From: Candidatus Heimdallarchaeota archaeon
Lineage (GTDB): Archaea > Asgardarchaeota > Heimdallarchaeia > Heimdallarchaeales > Heimdallarchaeaceae
Reading direction: 5' to 3'
Assembly: GCA_030628305.1 (NCBI GenBank)
Contig: DAOVRE010000078.1
Location: 1-6,923, forward strand
DNA length: 6,923 nucleotides
A program made the translations under genes and the position numbers. Under the pieces are notes generated by a model. The model saw only the letters and a program-made list of their open reading frames with translations. It was not told the DNA's origin and did no database searches. This document shows, piece after piece, positions 224 to 410 of the stretch (position 1 is the stretch's first letter; every line of letters begins with the position of its first letter).

Positions 224-240
224 CCTAGTAAGGTCAGAGA
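224..240 (+). other. 5' half of a bulge-helix-bulge-like terminal structure (partner 388-404)
   Basis: CCTAGTAAGG (224-233) pairs with CCTTGCTAGG (395-404) in 10 bp, one of them G-U. Next, TCAG (234-237) pairs with CTGA (388-391). The two helices are separated by a 3-nt bulge AAT (392-394) on one strand, and on the other strand AGA (238-240) follows the 4-bp helix. Two 3-nt bulges flanking a 4-bp helix is the archaeal splicing-endonuclease signature, and strand polarity is right for joining the 5S halves. A cut after the second base of the AAT bulge would end the RNA exactly at A393, the last base of the conserved 5S stretch. The inner helix is imperfect (264-271 with 380-387), so this would be a relaxed motif. 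CTGA also pairs with TCAG 371-374 in normal helix III, so the two folds compete. Confidence 0.5.
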
Positions 241-242
241 TA

Positions 243-263
243 CATCTGGATGCGTTCCAGATG
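243..263 (+). other. Extra hairpin in the 5S leader
   Basis: CATCTGGA (243-250) and TCCAGATG (256-263) form a perfect 8-bp stem with loop TGCGT. It has no counterpart in ordinary 5S rRNA and sits between the terminal stem and the GTTAAG that starts the 3' part. Its loop region shares the 7-mer GATGCGT (249-255) with the cap of helix I (339-345). It may be a processing signal or an added helix at the helix III junction of the mature RNA. Confidence 0.6.
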
Positions 264-394
264 GTCGGGAAAGTTAAGTCCTTCCACGTAGGGCTTGGTA
301 CTATGTTTCGAGAGAACTTGGGAAAAGCCACCCGTTGCGATGCGTCGCGGCCATAGTGAAGGGGTAACACTCAGACTCATTCCGAACCTGAAAT

Positions 395-410
395 CCTTGC
401 TAGGTTTTTT
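395..410 (+). terminator. 5S transcript end: stem strand followed by T6
   Basis: The 3' strand of the terminal stem (395-404) is followed at once by six T residues (405-410). Archaeal polymerase terminates at oligo-T runs, and a stable 5S fold just upstream would help. With the promoter at 188-200 this delimits a stand-alone unit of about 185 nt. Confidence 0.6.

What the first reader, a model, noticed from the sequence alone, without database searches (positions are those of the whole stretch)
224..404. Circularly permuted 5S rRNA gene in an archaeal chromosome
The 3' part of 5S (273-340) precedes the 5' part (345-393). The natural ends are fused through a UGCG tetraloop on helix I, and new ends open in helix III. 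Every 5S helix can be drawn, including the bulged base of helix II, a 13-nt loop C with CCGAAC, and loop E strands GGTACT/TGGGAA. Permuted 5S rRNAs are known to me only from certain mitochondria (Rfam mtPerm-5S). I do not recall one from a free-living archaeon, though I cannot check the literature here.
Basis: partly seen in the sequence, partly recalled or inferred. Interest (0 to 1): 0.95.

Follow-up and report, generated by a model that had tools for sequence, protein, structure and literature searches.

The report
Permuted 5S rRNA genes across Asgards
In Heimdall and many other Asgard archaea the 5S ribosomal RNA gene is written with its two halves swapped, with no convincing normal copy in the same genomes, and its flanks form a splice-type hairpin that is predicted to turn the RNA into a closed circle, so these ribosomes would likely carry a 5S RNA without ends.

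Summary
Window 224-404 is a circularly permuted 5S rRNA gene of a Heimdall-type archaeon, present in all 17 related contigs that cover the place. In 47 diverse sequences 28 of 29 core pairs change on both sides. Rotated, it scores as 5S; a covariance model built only from rotated sequences finds ordinary 5S genes at up to 128 bits. Of 227 genomes of its phylum 138 have the permuted form, 59 a normal-order gene, 30 neither; the five apparent overlaps have other explanations. The flanks form a bulge-helix-bulge-type stem: 49 of 114 loci meet a strict geometry, against 0-3 when the register is slid. Cutting both bulges and ligating would restore canonical loop B and give a closed 5S circle of about 121 nt (inferred; no RNA data). 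Some loci are opened at loop C instead and would again restore the normal sequence. Wu et al. 2022 could not predict 5S in circular Heimdallarchaeum genomes; this likely explains it. Ten library searches found no earlier report.

The parts
193..200 (+). TATA-box-like stretch upstream of the transcript (inferred promoter)
   Evidence: Sequence. TATA-like words lie upstream in 77 of 112 permuted loci against a mean of 36.6 and a maximum of 49 in shuffles.
224..233 (+). P1, 5' strand of the outer 10-bp stem
   Evidence: Pairs with 395-404 in 99.4% of cells. A-U to U-A change in L016; the two copies of G026 have other sequences that by eye still pair.
234..237 (+). UCAG, a leader copy of the helix III 5' strand; can pair with CUGA 388-391
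   Evidence: 4 of 4 pairs in 16 of 18 rows, 3 of 4 in two
243..263 (+). P2 hairpin of the leader, 8 bp, in the Heimdall family of the window
   Evidence: C-G to U-A in 5 of 18 rows; one mismatch cell, in L008
266..269 (+). Predicted central 4-bp helix of the bulge-helix-bulge, 5' strand
   Evidence: Pairs 4 of 4 with 387-390 in 18 of 18 rows, as CGGG (9) or CAGG (9) with CCUG
270..272 (+). Predicted 5' bulge AAA, cut predicted between 271 and 272
   Evidence: AAA in 17 of 18 rows, AUA in one; the cut position follows a recalled rule
272..392 (+). Predicted mature circular 5S rRNA, 121 nt
   Evidence: Inferred: joining 392 to 272 gives CUGA-AAGUUAAG, the canonical loop B
273..340 (+). 3' part of 5S rRNA: helix II 3' strand, helices V and IV with loop E, helix I 3' strand
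   Evidence: Covariation, rotated score
341..344 (+). UGCG tetraloop that joins the natural ends of 5S
   Evidence: UGCG, UUCG or UACG in relatives, UAUG in L016
345..391 (+). 5' part of 5S rRNA: helix I 5' strand, helix II 5' strand, helix III with the 13-nt loop C
   Evidence: Covariation
387..390 (+). Predicted central 4-bp helix of the bulge-helix-bulge, 3' strand
391..393 (+). Predicted 3' bulge AAA, cut predicted between 392 and 393
   Evidence: AAA in 18 of 18 rows
395..404 (+). P1, 3' strand of the outer stem
405..410 (+). T run, likely transcription terminator
   Evidence: Sequence

Best explanation
This is a circularly permuted 5S rRNA gene, the only kind of 5S gene found in the genomes of its close relatives, and its transcript is predicted to be cut at a bulge-helix-bulge by the tRNA-splicing endonuclease and closed by a ligase into a circular 5S rRNA that would serve in the ribosome. 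Shown: the permuted order, the 5S fold by covariation, its spread through the phylum, the lack of a normal-order gene over the Rfam cut-off in 19 of 19 close genomes, the bulge-helix-bulge geometry at many loci, endonuclease genes in one class and RtcB ligase genes in another. Inferred: transcription as one short unit from a TATA-type promoter to the T run; pairing of leader with trailer (P1 plus a 4-bp helix with a 3-nt bulge on each strand); cleavage after the second base of each bulge, which would free the 5S core; ligation of 392 to 272, which would restore CUGA-AAGUUAAG; and retention of the helix I loop, so that the mature RNA would have no ends.
For: Permuted order and fold. Rotated sequences score as 5S, and model R3, made only of 20 rotated sequences, finds normal 5S at 102-128 bits in six loci from outside the phylum and at 67-106 bits in the 14 normal-order loci of the phylum given. 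Conservation: 17 of 17 contigs that cover the place, then 138 of 227 genomes. Sole gene: RF00001 over cut-off in 0 of 19 genomes of the loci, all 21 weak matches lying at the permuted gene; in the class of G018, 55 of 58 genomes have the permuted form, and the two best normal-order matches outside permuted loci (G028, G041) lie on foreign-looking contigs. Bulge-helix-bulge: P1 of at least 6 bp plus a central helix with at least 3 of 4 pairs at the exact geometry in 49 of 114 loci, against 3 at offset +1 and 0 at the other seven offsets from -4 to +4. In 53 loci own leader-trailer duplexes have a median of -22.7 kcal/mol against a swapped mean of -14.0, and 31 of 53 beat all but at most two of 52 swaps. 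The canonical cut gives NNNN-AAG(U/C)(U/C)AA in 84 of 114. A second opening site, in loop C (e.g. L189, L184), read by eye with the same rule gives CCGGUC-CCAUCCGAACCCGG, the loop C of relatives opened at loop B such as L197. Enzymes: PF01974 in 58 of 58 genomes of the class of G018, at least two matches in 48; RtcB in 75 of 83 of the class of G087. Precedent: permuted SRP RNA of Thermoproteus is circular and its bulge-helix-bulge is cut by the splicing endonuclease (PMC4731332, abstract and passages).
Against: No RNA was seen: cutting, ligation and presence in ribosomes are all inferred. Only 49 of 114 loci meet the strict geometry (70 of 114 with P1 of 3 bp or more, where offset +3 gives 12); 15 of 114 have fewer than 3 pairs in the central helix in the two registers tried, and the register was chosen at offset zero, which favours it. 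In the window's own family P1 is parted from the central helix by the P2 hairpin, so the motif there is a relaxed one, and the window's duplex energy does not stand out (20 of 52 swaps as good; L051 29 of 52). The inner helix of a strict motif is weak. A paper states that in pure cultures 16S and 23S, but not 5S, often pass through a circular stage (PMC12918454, passage). 30 of 227 genomes have neither form at these thresholds.
Confidence: 0.83

Rival explanations
1. The mature RNA is a linear permuted 5S: leader and trailer are trimmed, the new ends stay open in loop B, and nothing is ligated, as I recall it for the permuted mitochondrial 5S.
For: Permuted mitochondrial 5S genes are known (cited in PMC10085705 and PMC7283268), and E. 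coli lives with a permuted 5S built into 23S. 65 of 114 loci do not meet the strict motif.
Against: The 3-nt bulges, the 4-bp helix and the exact restoration of loop B, and of loop C at the second site, would be unexplained.
Confidence: 0.11
2. The RNA is circularised and then reopened in the helix I loop, so that the ribosome receives a 5S with normal ends, as permuted tRNA genes do.
For: Permuted tRNA transcripts are circularised and cut to the standard form (PMC10085705, passage). Some loci have longer helix I loops or inserts.
Against: In the window's family the loop is a UNCG-type tetraloop that varies little, which suggests a kept cap. Over the phylum 16 of 47 aligned loops are UNCG by a simple pattern, and several of the rest are longer hairpins ending in UUCG, so this argument is weaker there.
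Confidence: 0.05
3. The permuted locus is a dead or regulatory relic and a normal 5S gene lies elsewhere, missed by assembly.
For: Many genomes here are metagenome assemblies, and the window's own genome is not held.
Against: RF00001 over cut-off in 0 of 19 genomes; G026, whose contig of 3,326,783 bp spans its listed size, has two permuted copies and no normal one; covariation shows selection on the permuted fold.
Confidence: 0.01

Closest known systems
Permuted SRP RNA of Thermoproteus (PMC4731332, abstract and passages)
   Same: Permuted gene for a universal RNA; bulge-helix-bulge at the new ends; splicing endonuclease and proposed RtcB closure; lack of a canonical gene was the first clue
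   Different: That is SRP RNA in two Thermoproteus species with the circle shown by RNA-seq; this is ribosomal RNA in 138 of 227 genomes of a phylum, with no RNA data yet
Permuted 5S rRNA of some mitochondria
   Same: 5S with natural ends fused and new ends inside
   Different: Organelle genomes; no Rfam family matched window 224-404 at E up to 1; no bulge-helix-bulge link is known to me
Circularly permuted tRNA genes (PMC3978253, PMC3218864, passages)
   Same: Half order swapped, bulge-helix-bulge at the junction
   Different: tRNA; the circle is reopened to give normal ends
Circular pre-16S and 23S rRNA of archaea (PMC8339473, PMC12918454, PMC7758197, passages)
   Same: Splicing endonuclease and ligation act on rRNA; circular 23S is reported in ribosomes and circular 16S and 23S transcripts of Asgard archaea in a metatranscriptome
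   Different: The 16S and 23S genes are not described as permuted; 5S is stated not to take part in pure cultures
Circular 5S species in Halobacterium and Sulfolobus (PMC12558985, passages)
   Same: Circular 5S molecules have been seen in archaea
   Different: Variable ends; the paper suggests they may belong to 5S decay; no permuted gene is described in the passages

Membership tests
5S rRNA | Helices I-V with loop C and loop E in the standard three-way fold | tested here: met
   RNAalifold of the rotated alignment gives helices I-V unaided
5S rRNA | Sequence and structure score of the rotated molecule | tested here: met
   The Rfam model itself could not be run on typed letters.
5S rRNA | Only 5S gene of its genome | tested here: met
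   In relatives. The window's own genome is not held.
5S rRNA | Present in the large ribosomal subunit | not testable with these tools
   No RNA or structure data
Rfam permuted mitochondrial 5S | Match to the Rfam model in native order | tested here: not met
   cmscan with all 4227 families at E up to 1 gave no match at 224-404; that mtPerm-5S is among the 4227 is recalled
Bulge-helix-bulge-processed permuted RNA | 4-bp helix with 3-nt bulges and a flanking stem at the new ends | tested here: met
   Strict in 49 of 114 loci, with P1 of at least 3 bp in 70 of 114; relaxed in the window's family
Bulge-helix-bulge-processed permuted RNA | Splicing endonuclease and RtcB encoded | tested here: inconclusive
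   PF01974 in 58 of 58 of the class of G018 and RtcB in 75 of 83 of the class of G087; the two were not searched in the same class
Bulge-helix-bulge-processed permuted RNA | Ligated junction found in RNA | not testable with these tools
   No RNA data; one pattern scan of viral contigs for the junction found nothing

The most novel reading that the evidence does not exclude
Most Asgard archaea, including nearly the whole Heimdall class, run their ribosomes on an endless, covalently circular 5S rRNA made by the tRNA-splicing machinery from genes opened at different sites (loop B or loop C) and in some lineages further interrupted by introns; since eukaryotes have ordinary 5S, gene order of 5S becomes a rare genomic character for placing eukaryotes among the Asgards.
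Probability: 0.6. Interest if true: 0.97.

Novelty: new variant of a known kind. Interest (0 to 1): 0.94.

Why it matters
5S rRNA is near-universal, and cellular genomes are expected to encode it in one order. Here much of a phylum close to eukaryotes does not, which likely explains why 5S could not be predicted in circular Heimdallarchaeum genomes. It predicts a ribosome with a 5S RNA that has no ends, gives a new substrate for the tRNA-splicing machinery, and offers a yes/no genomic character for Asgard and eukaryote phylogeny. It can be tested at once in existing enrichment cultures or metatranscriptomes by looking for junction reads.

Tried and rejected
Alternative placing of the central helix in the window: UCAG 234-237 with CUGA 388-391 next to P1. 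It has the right geometry, with 4 of 4 pairs in 16 of 18 rows, but would leave P2 as an insert in loop B, and by eye it is absent in the second copy of G026 (L131), where the 266-269 type helix is kept. It remains possible as a step.

Permuted 5S outside the phylum: one search reached 165 genomes beyond the 227. The two best matches there (G291, G349) proved to be tandem normal-order 5S genes, and the six others that I read were normal-order genes; the remaining outside matches were not read. Score alone is therefore not proof: R2 gives normal 5S up to about 60 bits there, but at most 37 in the eight normal-order loci of the phylum tried. The 40-bit line within the phylum rests on reading: of 20 fetched loci between 40 and 60 bits 16 were read by eye and are permuted. 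Other phyla were not searched.

Apparent double carriers: G110 and G041 match bacterial rRNA models; the G134 contig has 21% G+C and an odd LSU; the G028 contig carries RNA polymerase genes in a split and joined form and looks foreign (by recall of such structures, not tested); G030 is the permuted locus itself.

The RpoB tree used 90 of the 200 genomes with a match, plus one outgroup; one marker, quick method. The trait needs at least 6 changes against 24.4 shuffled, starred branches force only 2, and gain cannot be told from loss; 10 of the 90 have neither state and were not counted.

Rows dropped: of the 18 rows of A1 four went into the 114-locus test (the others are near copies), and truncated or repeated loci such as L049, L095, L097, L128, L134, L143 were left out. 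Of the 138 genomes, eight (G135, G143, G145, G147, G148, G149, G151, G166) are classed by score alone. The motif-order pattern was met in full by 100 of 114 loci; of the 14 that miss one part, 11 were read by eye.

Full report
What is in the window. The 6923-base window is a chromosomal piece of a Heimdall-type archaeon: its radical-SAM, methylthiotransferase-like protein (1757-3067) is 97% identical to one in a contig titled Candidatus Heimdallarchaeota, with gyrB and gyrA downstream. Base 224-404 holds the finding. The order is: P1 5' strand, UCAG, hairpin P2, then the 3' half of 5S (273-340), a UGCG loop, the 5' half of 5S (345-391), P1 3' strand and a T run. cmscan with all Rfam families at E up to 1 sees no 5S here, as expected if the order is swapped.

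It is a 5S rRNA. In 18 aligned loci the drawn structure pairs in 98.8% of cells, with 10 pairs changed on both sides, beyond all 500 shuffles. With 47 sequences from across the phylum the figures are 94.4% (62% shuffled), 28 of 29 pairs changed on both sides, and 450 double-changed cells against 132. Pairs that join the two swapped halves (helix II) and pairs of the capped helix I are among them. The 47-row alignment was fitted to the model, which favours the structure; A1 is a plain MAFFT alignment. Free folding does not by itself give the 5S fold for many of the single unrotated sequences. Rotated into normal order, the window scores 47.1 bits with an HMM of 28 normal-order 5S genes of the phylum against 19.2 in native order; 47 rotated sequences have a median of 49.4 bits (26 to 74), the same in native order 20.6, and 235 shuffles at most 1.3. 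Turned round, model R3, built only from 20 rotated permuted sequences, finds ordinary 5S genes at 102-128 bits in six loci from outside the phylum, 67-106 in 14 normal-order loci of the phylum and 53-57 in two bacterial contigs, while the seven permuted loci given in native order yield only two weaker matches each, at most 52 bits.

It is real and widespread. 20 related loci were found; 17 cover the place and all 17 have the permuted gene; one contig begins inside it and two begin downstream. RF00001 passes its cut-off in 0 of the 19 genomes of these loci, and its 21 weak matches lie at the permuted gene; R1 finds the permuted form in 17 of the 19. The phylum of G018 (227 genomes; taken to be the Asgards, since its named members are Heimdallarchaeota and Asgard group archaeon) was then searched. 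Model R1 found 64 and the broader R2 160 at E up to 0.01; counting those with at least 40 bits leaves 138, since eight normal-order loci of the phylum reached at most 37 bits and the lowest-scoring ones were read by eye. RF00001 is over its cut-off in 64, of which five overlap with the 138 and are explained by foreign-looking contigs or by the permuted locus itself. That leaves 138 permuted, 59 normal and 30 with neither. By class: the class of the named Heimdallarchaeota has 55 permuted of 58 and three with neither; the class of G087 has 63 permuted of 83, 6 normal and 14 with neither; the remaining 86 have 20 permuted, 53 normal and 13 with neither (G227, missed by the script's range, counted here). 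Names of classes other than the first are not given by the tools. Genome G026 is listed at 3.3 Mb, and its contig C1 of 3,326,783 bases holds two permuted copies; RF00001 and R3 match it only there. Its size fits Ca. Heimdallarchaeum endolithica (3.32 Mb), which is my inference. [quoted passage not shown]

How it probably works. In many lineages leader and trailer form P1 and then, before the 5S core, a 4-bp helix flanked by a 3-nt bulge on each strand, for example GGUAGUAUCG-CGUG-AAA-GUUAAG against CACG-GAA-CGAUACUACC in L123. Papers define this motif as two 3-nt bulges about a 4-bp helix, cut by the splicing endonuclease, with RtcB joining the ends (passages). That the cut falls after the second base of each bulge is recalled. 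Cutting there and joining gives CACGGA-AGUUAAG, the normal loop B. Over 114 loci 49 meet the strict geometry, and 0-3 when one strand is slid by up to four bases; the register was chosen between two options at offset zero, which favours it slightly. The cut product reads NNNN-AAG(U/C)(U/C)AA in 84 of 114. In the window's family the central helix is CGGG or CAGG (266-269) with CCUG (387-390), paired 4 of 4 in 18 of 18, with bulges AAA and AAA in 17 of 18, but the P2 hairpin stands between it and P1. The product would be a circle of bases 272-392, 121 nt. A further sign, read by eye: some loci of the class of G087 are opened in loop C instead (L127, L184, L185, L187, L189), and the same cutting rule gives, in L184 and L189, the loop C sequence of relatives that are opened in loop B. 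Several loci of that class also have inserts in loop C with the same look (CCGA-AAA ... UCGG-GAA in L179), in loop D (L186, L197) or on helix I (L174).

The enzymes: the endonuclease family is found in 58 of 58 genomes of the first class, with at least two matches in 48, which would fit the two-subunit type reported to accept relaxed motifs; RtcB in 75 of 83 of the second class. RtcB was not searched in the first class, nor the endonuclease in the second.

What is known. Permuted SRP RNA of Thermoproteus follows this route, with the circle shown by RNA-seq and the cut shown with recombinant enzyme (PMC4731332). Permuted tRNAs use it too. Permuted 5S was known from mitochondria (cited), and a permuted 5S works when built into E. 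coli 23S. Circular 5S species occur in Halobacterium and Sulfolobus, with a suggested link to decay. My ten library searches showed no report of a permuted 5S gene in an archaeon, by listings and the passages read; most subscription papers and all bioRxiv preprints are outside that library.

Evolution. On a quick RpoB tree of 90 of the genomes the two states need at least 6 changes (24.4 shuffled), two of them forced by well-supported branches. The permuted state spans several deep lineages, so it is old or repeatedly gained. It is the state of 55 of 58 genomes of the Heimdall class, whereas eukaryotes have the normal order (established knowledge). How this bears on the place of eukaryotes needs a better tree.

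Limits. No RNA evidence; single-marker tree; eight of the 138 genomes classed by score alone; genomes outside the phylum sampled only once (165, eight matches read).

Noticed in passing
window 5482-6922: gyrA is interrupted by an intein-like insert with a LAGLIDADG domain, and the reading frame of the insert breaks near 6431-6456.
   Followed up: no
L225 8277-8414 (-) (G028:C117): A normal-order 5S gene with a short hairpin insert at the same loop B site, flanked by the same kind of helix and bulges (CACG-GAA ... CGUG-AAA). The contig looks foreign; it could show the intron state from which permutation arises.
   Followed up: partly
L170, L171, L174, L176, L177, L179, L183, L186, L192, L197: 5S genes of the class of G087 carry extra inserts in loop C, loop D or on helix I, some of which look like bulge-helix-bulge introns.
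   Followed up: partly
L132 354-626 (G054:C510): Two permuted 5S copies lie head to tail 157 bases apart.
   Followed up: no
L217, L218 (G291, G349): Tandem normal-order 5S genes outside the phylum, which mimic a permuted gene for a permuted model.
   Followed up: yes
L226 7320-11346 (-) (G110:C68): A 23S gene that matches the bacterial model and holds a group I intron sits in an Asgard metagenome assembly, likely a contaminant contig.
   Followed up: partly
window 928-1605 (-): A protein with an OB-fold domain and an RPA C-terminal domain, replication-protein-A-like.
   Followed up: no
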